In this document: positions 127 through 7,882 of the stretch, piece by piece | Numbering within the stretch: the stretch's first letter is position 1 | Layout of the letters: each line of letters opens with the position of its first letter | Assembly (NCBI GenBank): GCA_016793885.1 | Contig: JAEUHE010000117.1 | Coordinates: 1 to 64,000 of the forward strand | Origin: Verrucomicrobiales bacterium | GTDB lineage: Bacteria; Verrucomicrobiota; Verrucomicrobiia; Limisphaerales; UBA11320 | DNA: 64,000 bases | Direction: 5' to 3' | The notes under the pieces: model-generated | Databases searched by the model: none | The model's input: the letters and a program-made list of their open reading frames with translations, nothing else | What the model was told of the DNA's origin: nothing | Translations under genes and position numbers: made by a program

Positions 127-315
127 CCAGCCTGGACTGAAAAGGGAGATCAGACTCCTGATCCCCCTGCGGACACACAGTCCCCCCAGCAATGGAATTG
201 CCGCTGACGAGAGGCAGCCCAGGGGAAGGATCCTAGTGACGATCGTGAAAGCTGTATAAATGCCCCCCTATTCCCTCGCTCACGTGCGTGTTGGAAAACC
301 GCTCCCCGAACGCAG

Positions 316-503
316 CACGACCAACTGAGTGAACGTACGTTGCGCCGATTGGTCGTGGGCGTGGGGGCATTGGTCGATATTAAATCTCCATCCATGGGAG
401 GTCGCTCGCCAAATCCGTTTCATCCGCCACCGGTCGCGGTCGAAAGCCGCTCCCGACACCACCACGACAAACCGGGCGAACGTACGTTCGGCGAGTTGGT
501 CGT
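316..503. repeat. Palindrome-bearing repeat, unit 1
   Basis: The unit has an imperfect palindrome at 316-357 (arms CACGACCA and TGGTCGTG, core AACGTACGTT), a spacer, then a conserved block starting ATCTCCATCC at about 384. A second palindrome at 464-503 has the same core. Each palindrome is preceded by a GCTCCC...CACGAC stretch. The whole arrangement recurs about 290 bp downstream, which points to a tandem duplication. The palindromes could be recombination or protein-binding sites, or ends of a small non-autonomous element. Function is unknown. Confidence 0.8.
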
Positions 504-607
504 TCAATCAAGGACCGAGAAACCCATATAATCTTCCTAAAGCAATATACTCAAATTACTTGTGACTTTTTGGAATGAAAACTCCTCTCCCCGACTTGTA
601 GCATTCA

Positions 608-792
608 ACGACCAATCGGCGCAACGTACGTTGAGCAGATTGGTCGCGAGAGGGGGGTGTTGGGTGAGACCGGATCTCCATCCATAGGAGGTCACCGGCT
701 AAATCCGTTTCATCCGCCACGGTCGTGGCCGAGAGCCGCTCCCGACACCACCACGACCAGCCGGGCGAACGTACGTTCGGCGAGTTGGTCAT
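608..792. repeat. Palindrome-bearing repeat, unit 2
   Basis: This is the second copy of the unit at 316-503, offset by 289-292 bp. Palindromes lie at 608-647 and 753-792, and the ATCTCCATCC block begins at 674. The palindrome at 608 matches the one at 316 best when reverse-complemented, so the asymmetric arms have flipped while the AACGTACGTT core stayed unchanged. Substitutions are scattered over the unit, so the duplication is not recent. Confidence 0.8.
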
Positions 793-1038
793 TGGGATGG
801 AAACAAAGAAAGAAAATCCCGCAGTCCCGAAGCAAATCCATCCGTCCTTTTCCCCTCCTCCTGATGGCGTAGATGGCAGGCGAGCCTCGCCTCACTCCCG
901 TCATCGCGGTTAAGGTAGGGCGAAACCCTTCGTCATCGCCAGATTGCTCGAAAGCCCTACCTCGAGGCACGATCCGACAGAAGGCAGTCAACCAATTGTC
1001 AATCGCTGGATCTGACCGCAACTCAGCCCATGACACGA

Positions 1039-1341
1039 CTAGAGCGAATTGCGCAGCCACAACGCTAAATGACCCACCAACACGCCCACAGAACTGGTTG
1101 TGAATAGCAGATCAGGCGGTCTCTGGCCTCTCAGGGATTTGGCGAAGAAGTAAATGCCTATTAATCCTAGTGATGGCCCAACAATTTGCATGACCGGATA
1201 GAGCAACTCAAAAGGGAATACCAAGCCAAACCCATAGGAATTGGGGACGATTACGACCGCAAGAAATGCGAGCCAACCCACGAGTATATGCAAGAACGCC
1301 ACCATAGTAGCTAATCGAATAATCTTCATCACGTGCAGCAT
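1039..1341 (-). CDS. Small hypothetical membrane protein
   Basis: A 100-residue frame with about three hydrophobic helices: residues 9-31 (LATMVAFLHILVG region), 45-67 (LLYPVMQIVGPSLGLIG region) and 80-95. It ends with a basic tail. An alternative start is Met5. It resembles the many small uncharacterised inner-membrane proteins of this lineage, but no family is recognised. Base composition is slightly AT-richer than in the housekeeping genes. It stands alone between the palindromic repeats and the DHPS-like gene, and no partner is visible. Confidence 0.55.
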   Translation of the reverse strand: MLHVMKIIRLATMVAFLHILVGWLAFLAVVIVPNSYGFGLVFPFELLYPVMQIVGPSLGLIGIYFFAKSLRGQRPPDLLFTTSSVGVLVGHLALWLRNSL

Positions 1342-1532
1342 TCCTTCATGAGTCTACAGCTGCTCAGGACCGGACGGAGTGGGGAACTTGAACTGGCTTA
1401 ACCTCTCAAAAATCTTACCAATATCAGAACTAAGAAATTGCTATTCCACAACAAGCTACCAGCCAAGGCAAGATCGTTGCGCACCGAATCTGAAACCTTT
1501 CGCTTCGCGAAGTTCTCGCTACAGTCCTCCCC

Positions 1533-2429
1533 ATGCTGTCCCTTGAGACACTCGCCCAACTAGCAACAGACTATCCCGACGCCCTCCGGGCGAAGGTCGC
1601 GGAATTTTCTCTTGGCCAGACTCACTTTGCGTTCAATCGCCAGCCAGCGGTGATGGGAGTGATCAATCTGTCCGCCGACTCCTGGTATCGAGAGAGTGTC
1701 TGTTTGACCGCCGAGGCTGCCATCCAACGCGGTCGAGTGCTCCAAGCCCAGGGCGCACAGATCGTGGACCTCGGTGCCGAATCAACCCTAGCGCACGCCA
1801 CCAGGGCGGATGAAGGGCTTCAGAACTCCAAGCTGCTGCCGGTGGTCAGGACACTCGCGAACGAGGGGCTGATTGTGTCGGTAGAAACCTATCTTCCCGA
1901 GGTCACCAAGGCTTGCCTGGACGCAGGAGCCAAGATCCTCAATCTGACCGGCGTGCGGCAGAGCGCGGAGATGTATCGCATGGTCGCCGACCACGACGCG
2001 GCGGTTATCATTTGCTTTGTCCAGGGCGCCCACGTCCGCGAGGTGACCGATCTTGAACTCGGCAAGGATCCCATCGGGGCGTTGCATGAGTTCTTCGCCC
2101 GGCAGATCGAACTGGCGGTCCAGCAAGGCGTGCGGAAACTGTTTATCGACCCGGGGCTGGGCTTTTACTACCGGAACCTGGGAGATAGCGCGGCTCGGGT
2201 GCGCCACCAGATGAACATCTTTCTGAACGCCTTTCGGCTTCGGACGTTGGGCTACCCTATCTGCAACGCGCTGCCCCACGCCTTCGAATTCTTCGGCGAT
2301 GAAGTTCGCTGCGCCGAACCCTACTTCGCGGTGCTCGCCGCCTTGGGTAAGACCGACCTTTTCCGCACCCACGAAGTCCCTCGGATCAAGGCGGTGCTGG
2401 ATACGATGGCTTGCTATCAGAGGCCCTGA
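1533..2429 (+). CDS. Dihydropteroate-synthase-like pterin-binding protein
   Basis: The 298-residue product has the TIM-barrel landmarks of the pterin-binding family in order: VMGVINLSADSW (about 40-51), IVDLGAESTLAHA (about 76-88), a VSVETYLPEVTKACLDAG strand-helix, IDPGLGF near 205 and the C-terminal FRTHEV near 280. True dihydropteroate synthase (folate pathway) joins p-aminobenzoate to a pterin pyrophosphate. Here several signature positions differ: GGEST reads GAEST, the Asp of the SVDT strand is Glu, the Lys after DPGIGF is absent, and no SRK motif precedes the end. The fold is clear but substrate and activity are not. It stands alone, with repeat-filled DNA downstream and no folate genes nearby. 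Confidence 0.8.
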   Translation: MLSLETLAQLATDYPDALRAKVAEFSLGQTHFAFNRQPAVMGVINLSADSWYRESVCLTAEAAIQRGRVLQAQGAQIVDLGAESTLAHATRADEGLQNSKLLPVVRTLANEGLIVSVETYLPEVTKACLDAGAKILNLTGVRQSAEMYRMVADHDAAVIICFVQGAHVREVTDLELGKDPIGALHEFFARQIELAVQQGVRKLFIDPGLGFYYRNLGDSAARVRHQMNIFLNAFRLRTLGYPICNALPHAFEFFGDEVRCAEPYFAVLAALGKTDLFRTHEVPRIKAVLDTMACYQRP

Positions 2430-2597
2430 GCAGCGACCGCTGGCCGATACGAGTAGGACCGCTTTGACGACGGATTTCTCGGATCACACGGATGGAAGAA
2501 AAATGGGGAAGCCGCGGCCGGGGCACCTGAGGTGTGAACAGGAGCGACAAGACAAGATGACCAATACGGGCGTTTCTCACCTTGGCGGCAGGGCCTT

Positions 2598-2850
2598 GAA
2601 CCCGCAGGGTTCAAAAAGATTAGCCGGGGGTGCTGGCACCCCCGGAACCATTAAAATTACGGAGCATCGCGCAGCGATGCCACCGGCTTCTCATGCTTGA
2701 ATCACCCCTACTCAAGGACCCCGATCCGTTGGTCGGTCCACTCGCCGACGGGTGGCACGCCTTTCAGGGTGCTGTAAAACAGGGGACCGACAGACCGGGG
2801 GTGTCGCTGCGCTCCACGCCCCGGCTAAGCTCTCAGAACCCTGTGGGTTC
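2598..2850. repeat. Inverted repeat pair (AACCC-AGGGTT / TAGCCGGGG)
   Basis: The left arm (about 2598-2640) reads GAACCCGCAGGGTTC, a short gap, then TAGCCGGGGG. The right arm (about 2811-2850) is the same two blocks in reverse complement, with a few mismatches. GGGGGTGCTGGCACCCCC at 2626-2643 is itself a strong hairpin. The arrangement resembles two facing copies of a short dispersed palindromic element. No coding capacity lies between the arms. Confidence 0.65.
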
Positions 2851-2924
2851 TCCGTAACGGATCCAGGAACTCACCCGACGAAGTGCGTGAGAAAGGTAGT
2901 GAAGCCGCGACGGACTCAGCGGCC

Positions 2925-3175
2925 TTATGCCGGGCTTTCAGCCCTGAATGGGAGGGGGATGTTTACCTGGGGTTTGTCACCCCAGGCTGTGATGGGACGC
3001 ACCGTTGGTGCTTAAGCCTAAAGGGCCTTCGACCCAATACCAAACCCAGCCTAGACATTCACTCGTGGTGTTAGGGTCAGCGGGCCACAGGCCCAGCACC
3101 ATTCCAGCCTGGGGTGACAACCCCAGGTTCCCTCAGCCCACACACGCTGAGGGCTGAAAGCCCGCACCATCAACG
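2925..3175. repeat. Inverted repeat pair (GGGCTTTCAGCCCT / CACCCCAGGCTG)
   Basis: The left arm (about 2930-3002) contains CGGGCTTTCAGCCCT and then GTCACCCCAGGCTG. The right arm (about 3105-3170) contains CAGCCTGGGGTGAC and then AGGGCTGAAAGCCCG, the reverse complement in mirrored order. The two arms face each other across about 100 bp. Elements built from the same two blocks recur often in verrucomicrobial intergenic DNA, by general recollection rather than by a search here. Confidence 0.65.
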
Positions 3176-3316
3176 GGGAATTGGCCGCTGAGCTCGACCT
3201 GAATCTCACCCACTTCTAACCGCGCCCTTCCGCGTTTCCACTCCTTAAGGCTCGCCGCGGCTCACTAACCTCCTATACACATCGGGCTTTCGGGTCTCCT
3301 CGGCCAGCCTGCTTTC

Positions 3317-3853
3317 TCACCCTTCACCAGGAAACGCGCGTGCGATTTCCAGGTAGTCTTTGTCTGCGACCAACGGACACCACATCGCATACTCACTGAA
3401 TGACAGGAAGGTTTTCGGCTTTCGCGCTTGTATCCAGAGTTCCCGAGAGATCACGAGTCCGGGCGGCGGCTTGTCATGTAGGAACTCGCCGCTGAGAATT
3501 TCAGGAACTGACAACTCATCAAAGACTTCCCAGCCAGCTTGAGCAAATCGGAAGCCCTGACAACCTGTCAGAAAATCATAGAAACGACGAAGAACCTCCA
3601 CTCGACACTCCATCCGTTCCAAGCGCCAGTTGGCGCATGGCAGGCTCATCCCCGGGGGCCGCACGTAGCAGCATGAGGAGTCATTCGCTGAGTGCGTGCC
3701 GATCTCCACGCAATCCGCGAACTCCAAGACGACCCCATTCAAGAGAGCCCACTCTTGCTGGCGGAAGATCTCAGCGAAGTGGGATGCCCCACTGCGATTG
3801 CTCCCAAAATCGATCATGAATCCAAAAACAACCATCGTTCGGCTCGAGCTCAT
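3317..3853 (-). CDS. Hypothetical protein of the RHS toxin island, possible immunity protein
   Basis: A soluble product of 178 residues when started at the ATG at 3853, which has a GAGG-like ribosome site about 14 bases upstream. The frame stays open to 3940, but those codons overlap the decayed gene upstream. It begins MSSSRTMVVFGFMIDFG and is rich in aromatic and acidic residues, with no signal peptide or membrane segment. No family is recognised. Its place downstream of the mini-RHS toxin and the first candidate immunity gene is where extra or cassette immunity genes are often found, so that role is a guess from context. Confidence 0.55.
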   Translation of the reverse strand: MSSSRTMVVFGFMIDFGSNRSGASHFAEIFRQQEWALLNGVVLEFADCVEIGTHSANDSSCCYVRPPGMSLPCANWRLERMECRVEVLRRFYDFLTGCQGFRFAQAGWEVFDELSVPEILSGEFLHDKPPPGLVISRELWIQARKPKTFLSFSEYAMWCPLVADKDYLEIARAFPGEG

Positions 3854-3882
3854 TGTTTCCAGACCTCGGAGATTGACTCGCG

Positions 3883-4246
3883 TCAACCGGGTCCTTCGCT
3901 CGCGCGCCGCTTGCACTCTGCTATAGCTTGCTCTATCCAAACACGAGACTTCTCGCTCGAAGTCGCCTCAAGCCATTGTTCAAGACCGCGCAAATTATCA
4001 GGCGTGGTCAGTTTTTCCACGCGAGCTTCACTTTCCTGTCCCTACAGGTCCAGGGAACGATCTCGTTGGTTGCCGTGACGTGAGCGGCACGTCGAACGGC
4101 TGCGGTGGCTCGATTGACATCAATCCATCCGATCAGCATTTCGTGGAATTTGTCTTTTTCGTCCATCCGATCAGTTCCTCAAGCAGGTAGGCAGTCACCC
4201 AGAAAATGTTGGCCTTATCGGCATCCCAAGGCTTAGAGGCAGCCGA
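3883..4246 (-). pseudogene. Decayed gene fragment between island genes
   Basis: Protein-like sequence runs through three frames. Directly after the stop of the upstream 108-residue gene, the same frame continues with KANIFWVTAYLLEELIGW (ending near 4160). A shifted frame from 4166 gives DKFHEMLIGWIDVNRAT and on to a stop near 4008. A third frame ends with TTPDNLRGLEQWLEATSSEK and stops at 3883. No single start joins them. This looks like one ancestral helical protein of roughly 110-120 residues broken by two frameshifts. It may be a relic immunity gene, or the lost C-terminal part of the upstream gene. Confidence 0.5.
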
Positions 4247-4573
4247 TCACCATGCTGGCTCCGACGTGATCGGAGGCAAACGAAAAGACACCTCCCCTTC
4301 AAAAAGCTGAACGTCCAGCGCTTCCACTCCTTGGCGCTCGCCCTCCCAGACTACCCGGAGACCAAATCCTCGAATCGTGTTCTTAAGTTTCTCCAAGAAG
4401 CAAAGCTCCTGCCGAGCGACTCGCCGCTCATGCTCCTCAAACACCAACCTAGCCGCAGATGGCATATCGACCAGTTCGCAACGGGCGACAACCGCCCCAT
4501 ACGAGTCACGGGCGTCTGTAAACCGGAACCAAATGGCTCCGGCGTCATCCACCACTGCACCTCGGGTTTTCAT
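4247..4573 (-). CDS. Candidate immunity protein for the mini-RHS toxin
   Basis: A 108-residue cytoplasmic protein starting at the ATG at 4573, 14 bases after the stop codon of the RHS gene. An upstream in-frame ATG at 4636 would overlap the toxin gene and is less likely. Acidic and mixed alpha/beta in appearance: it opens MKTRGAVVDDAGAIWFRF, contains a charged helix (VFEEHERRVARQELCFLEK), and ends PPITSEPAW. No family is recognised. The immunity role rests on position: in polymorphic toxin systems the gene directly 3' of the toxin domain usually encodes the cognate inhibitor. The frame remains readable past its stop (see the decayed fragment), so the protein may once have been longer. Confidence 0.65.
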   Translation of the reverse strand: MKTRGAVVDDAGAIWFRFTDARDSYGAVVARCELVDMPSAARLVFEEHERRVARQELCFLEKLKNTIRGFGLRVVWEGERQGVEALDVQLFEGEVSFRLPPITSEPAW

Positions 4574-4587
4574 AGTCGCACCAGGAA

Positions 4588-5937
4588 TCATGGAACAGCG
4601 TGGTCGGTGAAGACATCTGACAACACTCGTTGCCAAGCCGAATTCTGGAACGGAGTCGCCATTCGACTTTGATGATACAAGCGTCCGTGATTCGCCAGTG
4701 TGCCTGGTTTCGCGACCACGTCGAATCCAGCTGCTCTGACGCTCGAAATTTTTGCGCTACCCACGGTCTTTGACAATGCAATAGTCCGAGGAAAGGGAAA
4801 AGCCGTCCTAAACTGAAAGGCTGCTTCCTGCGGACTGCCACCAATCAACACCGAAAAACCTGGCGGATTCAGAGCGTCTTCAGCTGATGTTAATCCCATG
4901 TTTGATTTCCCTCCCATTCGATGAACCGTGAGATCACCCGGCGGTTCGCCATCCTCCTCGAGTGAGGGTGCCCGCTTAAAATTCAGAAACCGTGGCTGGG
5001 TTTCCAACACAGCATCCGTAACGAGCGCAATGTTTCCGCCGATTGTAGTTCCCAAAACCGCATAGGTTCCAATTCGGTAAAGGAGCGATCCCCTGACAGA
5101 GTGCGCGAATGTTGCCAAGGTTCCTCCACCAAGCGCCTGGGAGTTTTGGTAGATCGTCTGAATAGAGACCTGACCTGAAATCGTGAGGCTGGGGTCGTAC
5201 CCACTGGGATCCGTGTTGTTGACAGGATCGGCTAGAGCATAGCTGTATTTATGCAGCCCCGCCGGCAGTTCCCGCTGCCCCTCGTAGGAGTCCATCGTTC
5301 TGAAGCGGCCGACGTCAGGTTCATACTGCCGGGCGCGCAGGTCCTGCAGCCCGCTGGCTGGATCATAGAACTCGCCTGCATAACCTGCTGCTTCTCGATC
5401 CTCCTCGGCGACCGTTCGCGTTGGCTCCATTAGTGCGACCAAGGGGCTGCCGAAGGCATCATAGCCGCGGAGGTCCGCCAACGTCCCCCCATCCTTCACG
5501 TGCCCACGCACCGAGTGATGCCCGTCTACCAACGCATAGCTCACTCGATCCATCGCCGCTTCCGCGATCGGATGCAGCCCATGCAGGTAGCTACGATCCC
5601 CTTCCCCGTCTTCCCCTCGCTCTGCCACTCGCTGCGCATAACCACTTGGATGCTGCGGATCGATCAGGAAGCGGGTGAAATTCGTTCGCCATCGCTGCTC
5701 GACCTCGTCCCACTCGACAACTCGCTTCCCCACCCGCTGGCCATCAGCATCGTAGAGAAACGTTGTCAGTATGGATGGCGCCGCCAGAAGTTCGGCGGCG
5801 CCGACAGGGAATAGGCCCGGCAGTAGCAATAGAAGGGAGAGCAGCCAACGCCTCGAGGTCCGTAAGGAACGACCGCTCAAGCGCTGCTGGTGGGCCGATC
5901 CGCTCCTATTACGATTCACTCGTGTCATGTGAGACAT
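4588..5937 (-). CDS. Secreted mini-RHS protein with unassigned C-terminal toxin-like domain
   Basis: A 449-residue protein with four parts. Residues 1-30 are a basic N-region. About 31-53 is a hydrophobic signal segment (WLLSLLLLLPGLFPVG). About 60-245 is RHS sequence with one YD motif (YDADGQRVGKRV), a YLHGLHPIAE block, GYDAFGSPL and the core end GLQDLRARQYEPDVGRF...DPVNNTDPSG. About 250-449 is a unique C-terminus containing PPGFSVLIGGSPQEAAFQF and HGRLYHQ. RHS shells normally exceed 1000 residues and enclose the toxin, but here only the closing core remains behind a signal peptide. This is either a truncated orphan tip or a minimal delivery form. The toxin-like domain matches no family I can name, and no CDS for secretion machinery (VgrG, TcB) lies nearby. 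Confidence 0.75.
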   Translation of the reverse strand: MSHMTRVNRNRSGSAHQQRLSGRSLRTSRRWLLSLLLLLPGLFPVGAAELLAAPSILTTFLYDADGQRVGKRVVEWDEVEQRWRTNFTRFLIDPQHPSGYAQRVAERGEDGEGDRSYLHGLHPIAEAAMDRVSYALVDGHHSVRGHVKDGGTLADLRGYDAFGSPLVALMEPTRTVAEEDREAAGYAGEFYDPASGLQDLRARQYEPDVGRFRTMDSYEGQRELPAGLHKYSYALADPVNNTDPSGYDPSLTISGQVSIQTIYQNSQALGGGTLATFAHSVRGSLLYRIGTYAVLGTTIGGNIALVTDAVLETQPRFLNFKRAPSLEEDGEPPGDLTVHRMGGKSNMGLTSAEDALNPPGFSVLIGGSPQEAAFQFRTAFPFPRTIALSKTVGSAKISSVRAAGFDVVAKPGTLANHGRLYHQSRMATPFQNSAWQRVLSDVFTDHAVP

Positions 5938-6018
5938 CCTCGCATGAGCCTGCCAGTTCGCTCGGATCCAACAATCCCGTAAACTAGGGGATACCGTTGG
6001 ATTCGACCTTGGTTAGGC

Positions 6019-6072
6019 CCTAGTTCTAGTGAGGGGCTCGACGAGATCAGAACTCTAAACTCAATCGGACCA
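6019..6072 (+). repeat. Dispersed repeat B, copy 1
   Basis: It contains AGGGGCTCGACGAGATCAGAA and then AAACTCAATCGGACC. A similar segment at 45015-45068 has GGGCTCGAGTGG, ATCAGAACT and AAACCTCATCGGACC in the same order. At both sites it accompanies a copy of repeat A, but with a different relative orientation. Confidence 0.6.
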
Positions 6073-6334: not shown

Positions 6335-7882
6335 TTACGGCTTAGGAGGGACGGAAACTGGCGGCGGACCACTCGGTGCCTTGTCAATGCTCAAGCCGAT
6401 GACGCGGTTAGTCACCCCGTAAATCATGTTGGTGTCCGGAACCTTGAACTGGTTCACCAAGTTCGTGACGGACTCGATTCCTAGGCGGGTCTTGAGGCGA
6501 GCTTGCAGCTCCGGATACAACCCGGTCTCGGGATCCAACAGTTCGCGCAATGCCTCCTTGCGCAACTCCTCGAAGTCCTGCAGGCGAACGCGCTCCGTGT
6601 AGCCAAAACGCTTCTGGAAGTCCTCGTAGATCACCCGCGCCAGCGTCTCGTAGCGCAGCGCCTCATTCATCTTCAAAATCGACATCTGCGAGAACGCGCT
6701 CTTGAGGAATCCCAGAATGATGGGCTTGATCCGCTGAACGTTCCCATCGTCGATGATCTCCTTAAGGCGGATCAGCGCATAGGGCTCCATCTCGGTTTGC
6801 TCCTCGGTGAAGTCGGGAAAACGCTGCCTCAGCTGCTGAAACCATTGCTCCGCTTCCGCGTTGCGATTGTTCACATACAGCTGGTAGACCACTTCGCGAA
6901 GAAAATTTCGATAGGCGACATCGATGCCGGTAACCCGCACGGTTTTCTCCTCCTTGATCATCTCGAGATAGCCCTGGTTGGCTACTGGGATCAGATCGAG
7001 ATCCGGAGCGGTTTGAGGTCGTCCATCCTTCGTGAAGTTGATGATCCGGCCCCGGAGAACCAGAGAGTGAAGGGACTGATAGATGAGCCGGCGAAGCGTC
7101 ACCAAGGTTTCACGGTTTCCAGGGTTCTCCGTGCAGTTTTTCAAACCCAGATATCCCCAGTAGATGGCGTGGGGATCAGGGAGCCGCCACTCCATCCGAC
7201 CATACTTGGATTCGACCTCAGCCATGAGGGCGGGATCGAGCTTGTACCGCTTGTAGAGCGATTCCGCGCGCTGTTTCAACTCATCCGAGTCCGGATTGAC
7301 CAGCATCGTGATATTGGTCGCGGCACCGCCCAAGGCGGTGTTCATCTCCGCATACCAGGCTCCTTTGTAGTAAAGATGCGCCTCGTCCAGGAAGTAGCCG
7401 ATCTTGTGCTGAAAAAACCAGCCCAGCTCGCGGTAGACGTCGGCCTCCGTGGGATTGTAACGAAGCCCTTCGTCCCGCAGCAGCTCCACTGCCCGCATGA
7501 CCCAGCGCCAACGGTCGGTGGGGGACGTGAACCGAACCGAAATGTTGTAGGCCATGTTCCAGGCCATGTGCGACCAAACCTGGGGAATCCGGGGCTCGAG
7601 CTTGGTAATCCAGTCCGACAGCTGAACCATCTCGAAGAACTTGCTCTGCTCCTGAAGCTGAGTCGCTCGGATCCACAGCGCATTCGCAATCAGACCACGA
7701 AAACTCCCCAGAGCCACGCTGGTGAACGCAAGCAGCGGAGGGGCATTTTCCAGGATGGCGGCCTGCTTCAACCCCATCACGGGATCGAGCCGCTGAACAT
7801 CCAGCGATCGCTGCAACAAACCGGACAAAGCCAGCAGCAGCACCGCCACCACCGTCAGGACTTGCTTGTAGATCCGATGCAT
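6335..7882 (-). CDS. Membrane-anchored helical protein, third component of ABC operon
   Basis: A 515-residue protein with one N-terminal membrane anchor (residues 8-26, VLTVVAVLLLALSGLL). A long helical, tetratricopeptide-like region follows, rich in Trp and Tyr (QVWSHMAWNMAYN near 100, ELGWFFQHKIGYF near 160, an IYWGYLGL stretch near 245). The C-terminus is Pro-rich. It starts 15 bases after the ABC permease, so it is the last gene of a three-gene operon. No enzyme motif is seen. The likely role is a periplasmic or membrane-associated partner of the transporter. Similar third genes occur with ABC-2 pairs in this phylum, by general recollection rather than a search. Confidence 0.8.
   Translation of the reverse strand: MHRIYKQVLTVVAVLLLALSGLLQRSLDVQRLDPVMGLKQAAILENAPPLLAFTSVALGSFRGLIANALWIRATQLQEQSKFFEMVQLSDWITKLEPRIPQVWSHMAWNMAYNISVRFTSPTDRWRWVMRAVELLRDEGLRYNPTEADVYRELGWFFQHKIGYFLDEAHLYYKGAWYAEMNTALGGAATNITMLVNPDSDELKQRAESLYKRYKLDPALMAEVESKYGRMEWRLPDPHAIYWGYLGLKNCTENPGNRETLVTLRRLIYQSLHSLVLRGRIINFTKDGRPQTAPDLDLIPVANQGYLEMIKEEKTVRVTGIDVAYRNFLREVVYQLYVNNRNAEAEQWFQQLRQRFPDFTEEQTEMEPYALIRLKEIIDDGNVQRIKPIILGFLKSAFSQMSILKMNEALRYETLARVIYEDFQKRFGYTERVRLQDFEELRKEALRELLDPETGLYPELQARLKTRLGIESVTNLVNQFKVPDTNMIYGVTNRVIGLSIDKAPSGPPPVSVPPKP

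What the first reader, a model, noticed from the sequence alone, without database searches (positions are those of the whole stretch)
3317..5937. Compact mini-RHS toxin island with an unassigned toxin domain and candidate immunity genes
Seen: a 449-residue protein has a signal peptide, only the closing part of an RHS core, and about 200 unique C-terminal residues, with a 108-residue gene 14 bases downstream and a further small gene beyond. Known: RHS polymorphic toxins are usually very long shells with a variable C-terminal toxin and an adjacent immunity gene. Inference: this is a secreted miniature or orphan tip with a new toxin-immunity pair. The lack of a shell and of VgrG or Tc genes makes delivery an open question.
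Basis: partly seen in the sequence, partly recalled or inferred. Interest (0 to 1): 0.65.

Follow-up and report, generated by a model that had tools for sequence, protein, structure and literature searches.

The report
Secreted shell-less RHS toxin–immunity cassette
This locus encodes a small, probably exported protein that keeps only the last ~190 residues of an RHS toxin shell joined to a toxin-like tip of no known family, with its probable antidote gene directly behind; seven genomes in all carry similar mini-RHS genes, mostly with other tips, so it is a recurring small weapon design and not a broken gene.

Summary
Window 4588-5937(-) encodes 449 residues: a hydrophobic leader, the last ~190 residues of an RHS core ending at DPSG, then a C-terminus with no database match.

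It is not a broken long RHS gene. The genome has four other mini-RHS genes of this subfamily, and similar ones occur in all four other genomes of the genus and in two more distant ones. Tips differ, and related tips have related downstream genes. Two siblings carry recognised toxin domains: an LHH nuclease followed by a SUKH immunity gene, and an RNase A domain.

The window gene is a mosaic: its front resembles a paralogue on another contig, while tip plus neighbour resemble a pair in another family (67% and 61% identity, purifying selection). The second small gene is homologous to the two genes behind that paralogue's different tip, so it is probably an orphan immunity gene.

Most likely a Sec-exported, shell-less RHS polymorphic toxin with a new toxin/immunity family. 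Toxin activity and delivery remain unknown: structure prediction failed and no T6SS sheath was found.

The parts
4588..5937 (-). Mini-RHS protein, 449 aa (whole gene)
   Evidence: ORF; TIGR03696; paralogues and relatives of the same build
5788..5937 (-). Probable signal peptide region (residues 1-50)
   Evidence: Hydrophobic stretch followed by AA; hydropathy only; the exact start codon is uncertain
5200..5775 (-). RHS remnant: last shell strands and C-terminal plug (residues 55-246), ending at DPSG
   Evidence: TIGR03696 residues 159-246; alignment to solved Rhs/TcC shells up to the cleavage site
4591..5187 (-). Exchangeable C-terminus (residues 251-449): helical linker plus candidate toxin domain
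   Evidence: 67% identical over the whole tip to G021, unlike every other sibling tip
4591..4950 (-). Candidate toxin domain (about residues 330-449), new family
   Evidence: 74% identical to G021; no family match
4247..4591 (-). Probable cognate immunity gene, 114 aa (108 aa from ATG 4573)
   Evidence: 4-bp overlap with the toxin stop; 61% identical to the gene behind the G021 tip; purifying selection
3317..3853 (-). Probable orphan immunity gene, 178 aa
   Evidence: Homologous to both genes behind the C236 mini-RHS, which has a different tip (E 2.8e-20 and 2.7e-10)
5938..6029 (-). 5' leader shared with the C236 paralogue
   Evidence: 92 bp at 79% identity

Best explanation
The locus is a compact polymorphic toxin-immunity cassette. 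The protein is exported by the Sec route, keeps only the last strands and the C-terminal plug of an RHS shell, and carries an exchangeable ~200-residue C-terminus whose last ~110 residues are a toxin domain of a new family. The overlapping gene behind it encodes the cognate immunity protein. The gene further down is an orphan immunity gene for another tip. Tips and their immunity genes are swapped together at the conserved end of the RHS core. Shown: architecture, recurrence, mosaic structure, co-segregation, selection. Inferred: export, toxicity, immunity, possible self-cleavage at DPSG. Unknown: the target of the toxin, and how it crosses the outer membrane and enters a neighbour.
For: Five genes of this build in the genome, others in all four other genomes of the genus and in G021 and G052; a hydrophobic leader in each intact copy. 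Siblings carry an LHH nuclease (PF14411, 9.8e-11) followed by a SUKH gene (PF14567, 5.3e-15), and an RNase A CdiA-CT domain (PF18431, 4.9e-11). Most mini-RHS genes have a small ORF starting close to the stop. Tip families and downstream-gene families group alike in two independent sets. Mosaic gene: C236-like to about residue 220-240, G021-like from about 181-200 on; GC 0.61 before and 0.53 after the junction. Codon-position pattern of purifying selection on tip and neighbour.
Against: No toxin fold could be assigned: AlphaFold pLDDT 44 and 40, no family. The tip is known from only two genomes. The first DPxGL motif is degenerate (DSYEG) and the residue after the second is Y, not L. No delivery machine found: no T6SS sheath. 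Not every mini-RHS has a convincing downstream gene (L087, L078).
Confidence: 0.77

Rival explanations
1. A degraded or displaced RHS tip: the 3' end of a lost full-length RHS gene, kept by chance or as a spare tip for recombination, neither exported nor delivered.
For: Short RHS remnant plus tip plus small gene resembles the leaderless tip array on contig C89 of the same genome.
Against: Own leader and shared 5' flank; same build and similar length across five genomes of the genus; purifying selection; no RHS coding upstream.
Confidence: 0.1
2. An intracellular toxin-antitoxin module: tip and neighbour act inside the producing cell, as proposed for orphan RHS elements of Salmonella (abstract of PMC7043789).
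For: Tight toxin-immunity coupling with a 4-bp overlap.
Against: Hydrophobic leader in all intact siblings points out of the cytoplasm.
Confidence: 0.06
3. A secreted non-toxic protein (enzyme or surface protein) whose RHS remnant is only a scaffold, with a chaperone or inhibitor gene downstream.
For: No toxin fold could be assigned to this tip.
Against: Siblings on the same chassis carry recognised nuclease/RNase toxin domains and a SUKH immunity gene; tips are swapped together with their neighbours.
Confidence: 0.07

Closest known systems
RHS polymorphic toxins (T6SS Rhs1, RhsA, Tse5; TcC)
   Same: C-terminal plug core with the second DPxG motif and its Asp (D243; catalytic position by PMC8636562), variable C-terminus behind it, immunity gene behind that; the retained part aligns to the last ~180 residues of solved shells
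   Different: About 100 residues of strands in place of a closed shell, no PAAR/VgrG-type N-terminus, no T6SS sheath in the genome, a hydrophobic leader, first DPxGL motif degenerate
Orphan (displaced) RHS tips
   Same: Short RHS remnant plus toxin plus immunity gene, as on contig C89 here
   Different: Has a leader and its own 5' flank, stands alone, and the same build recurs across genomes
MafB toxins and other Sec/T2SS-type polymorphic toxins of Zhang et al. 2012 (PMC3482391)
   Same: Leader, constant N-terminal part, exchangeable toxin tip, immunity gene downstream
   Different: The constant part is an RHS remnant, not MafB-N; no MafA partner seen
WapA-type RHS toxins of Gram-positives
   Same: Exported RHS protein with a variable toxin tip and immunity gene (own knowledge; abstract of PMC12704120)
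   Different: WapA is a long protein with a full RHS part (own knowledge); this one is not

Membership tests
RHS polymorphic toxin | Rhs_assc_core domain directly before the variable C-terminus | tested here: met
   TIGR03696 residues 159-246, E=1.6e-15
RHS polymorphic toxin | Polymorphic C-terminus exchanged together with the downstream gene | tested here: met
   Mosaic gene and co-segregating families
RHS polymorphic toxin | YD-repeat shell that encloses the toxin | tested here: not met
   Only ~100 residues of strands precede the core; no RHS coding upstream
RHS polymorphic toxin | Aspartyl self-cleavage motifs, two DPxGL about 17 residues apart | tested here: inconclusive
   D216 and D243-P-x-G invariant in 13 mini-RHS, but the first motif is DSYEG, the Asp spacing is 27 instead of 22, and the L after the second is Y
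RHS polymorphic toxin | C-terminus is toxic and neutralised by the neighbour | not testable with these tools
   Needs expression experiments
T6SS Rhs effector | PAAR/VgrG-type N-terminus and a T6SS in the genome | tested here: not met
   Leader in place of PAAR; T6SS_VipA absent while the E. coli control rang
Displaced orphan RHS tip | No export signal; lies behind a full-length RHS gene | tested here: not met
   Leader present; no RHS coding upstream
MafB toxin | MafB-N (DUF1020) domain after the signal peptide | tested here: not met
   No such Pfam match
Sec-exported polymorphic toxin | N-terminal signal peptide | tested here: inconclusive
   Hydropathy only; present in all intact mini-RHS examined

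The most novel reading that the evidence does not exclude
A distinct, genus-wide class of shell-less, Sec-exported RHS toxins in which the C-terminal plug alone serves as chassis and perhaps self-cleaving release module for exchangeable toxins, so that the closed RHS cocoon is dispensable; with a wholly new toxin and immunity family in this locus.
Probability: 0.35. Interest if true: 0.65.

Novelty: new variant of a known kind. Interest (0 to 1): 0.5.

Why it matters
Current models give the RHS shell the job of enclosing the toxin until delivery. A recurring class that drops the shell but keeps the plug and a leader asks what the plug does alone and how an unshielded toxin gets out and into a rival. 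The chassis is under 250 residues and tips swap naturally, so this is directly testable. The locus also offers a toxin and an immunity family with no match in Pfam or NCBIfam.

Tried and rejected
Tip searches in plasmids, phages and IMG/VR: plasmid hits were DNA methyltransferase matches at E 0.5-0.8, the others none. Weak hits of the tip profile in the order were other reading frames or unrelated proteins and were rejected as noise; the G048 and G137 hits at E 0.003-0.006 lay among unrelated genes. AlphaFold of the tip (2 sequences) and of the whole protein (13 sequences) gave pLDDT 44 and 40; fold search with the tip model gave only chance matches, with the whole model weak matches to Rhs/teneurin shells. 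A relation of this tip to the C236 tip, which looks ART-like by eye, was tested by profile comparison and not supported; with so few sequences that test has little power. ART-like, NTase-like and peptidase-like labels for other sibling tips are by eye only. Contractile delivery: no T6SS sheath; one weak lone sheath-like gene on C225 with no cluster evident around it. Tc components were not searched. A conserved genomic position: the neighbouring operon gene (6335-7882) is conserved in the genus, but no mini-RHS lies beside it in G001-G004. The orphan-immunity family has only four members in 320 genomes, one of them stand-alone in G158.

Full report
Observation. The minus-strand ORF 4588-5937 encodes 449 residues. 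Residues 159-246 match Rhs_assc_core; the C-terminal ~200 residues match no family.

What remains of RHS. A profile of eight mini-RHS cores aligns to residues 1115-1289 of the Rhs family protein in 7q97 and 1974-2156 of TcdB2-TccC3, that is the last strands of the shell and the C-terminal plug up to the cleavage site. In Rhs1 the shell is residues 420-1262, the plug 1263-1357, and the catalytic Asp lies in the second DPLGL (PMC8636562). Here the corresponding Asp (D243) and D216 are invariant in 13 mini-RHS; the first motif is degenerate (DSYEG).

Not a fragment. The own genome holds five genes of this subfamily, on contigs C117, C236, C224, C152 and C197, further short RHS ORFs on C60 and many large RHS genes, and a separate array of leaderless tips on C89. 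Genes of the same build occur in G001-G004, G021 and G052; the G004 copy has a stop inside. Each intact copy has a hydrophobic leader. No RHS coding precedes the window gene.

Toxin-immunity logic. Sibling C-termini include an LHH nuclease with a SUKH gene behind it and an RNase A CdiA-CT domain cut by a contig end. All-against-all comparison of 12 tips and 11 downstream proteins gives two tip families (C117/G021; G003 C17a and C17b with G002 C375) and the same two groupings among the downstream proteins, plus the link of 3317-3853 to a C236 downstream gene. G021 has tip and neighbour adjacent, behind a leader and only ~50 residues of RHS.

Recombination. Block identities show the window gene to be C236-like up to about residue 220-240 and G021-like from about 181-200 onward, the overlap being the conserved end of the core. 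The 92 bp upstream are 79% identical to the C236 flank. GC is 0.611 before and 0.53 after the junction. Codon-position identities indicate purifying selection on tip and neighbour.

Second small gene. 3317-3853 matches the two genes behind the C236 mini-RHS (E 2.8e-20 and 2.7e-10). C236 has a different tip, so this is most simply an orphan immunity gene left by an earlier tip or kept against rivals.

Mechanism. Export by Sec: inferred from the leaders. Self-cleavage: possible, motif partly kept. Toxicity and immunity: inferred from co-segregation and from siblings. Target: unknown. Delivery: unknown; no T6SS sheath, and no contractile-system cluster evident around the one weak sheath-like gene. 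Structure prediction failed for lack of relatives.

Placing. The nearest described category is the Sec/T2SS-exported polymorphic toxins of Zhang et al. 2012 (PMC3482391), and within it MafB, which has another constant domain. Searches for mini, short, small, truncated or orphan Rhs listed orphan tips and T6SS effectors but, judged by titles and abstracts, no exported shell-less class; the library is partial. I call it a new variant of a known kind.

Noticed in passing
L009:5270-5659 (contig C152, own genome): The small gene behind the C152 mini-RHS contains a stretch resembling RNA polymerase beta subunit domain 6 (PF00562, E=7.6e-6, above cut-off). The paired tip has an EEIQHGLDR motif.
   Followed up: no
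L056 (contig C89, own genome), 953-5877: Tandem array of at least four short leaderless RHS tips with small genes between them, in the same genome as the leader-bearing mini-RHS.
   Followed up: partly
window 2747; L007 4584, 7586, 7832; L008 8982; L012 13471; L097 5015: Interspersed intergenic repeat containing GAYGGGTGGCACGCCTTTCAGGG; it lies near three of the five mini-RHS loci, on both sides of the C236 one.
   Followed up: partly
L058:7023-8684 (contig C60, own genome): Mini-RHS of another subfamily with a leader and an RNase A-like toxin, cut by the contig end.
   Followed up: partly
L097:5330-6913 (contig C225, own genome): Lone phage-sheath-like protein (PF04984, E=3.7e-4, below cut-off) with no contractile-system cluster evident around it.
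   Followed up: partly
window 150-1100: Repeated short peptides (ERTFGELVV, AERTFARLVV) in several frames and strands suggest another interspersed repeat near the start of the window.
   Followed up: no
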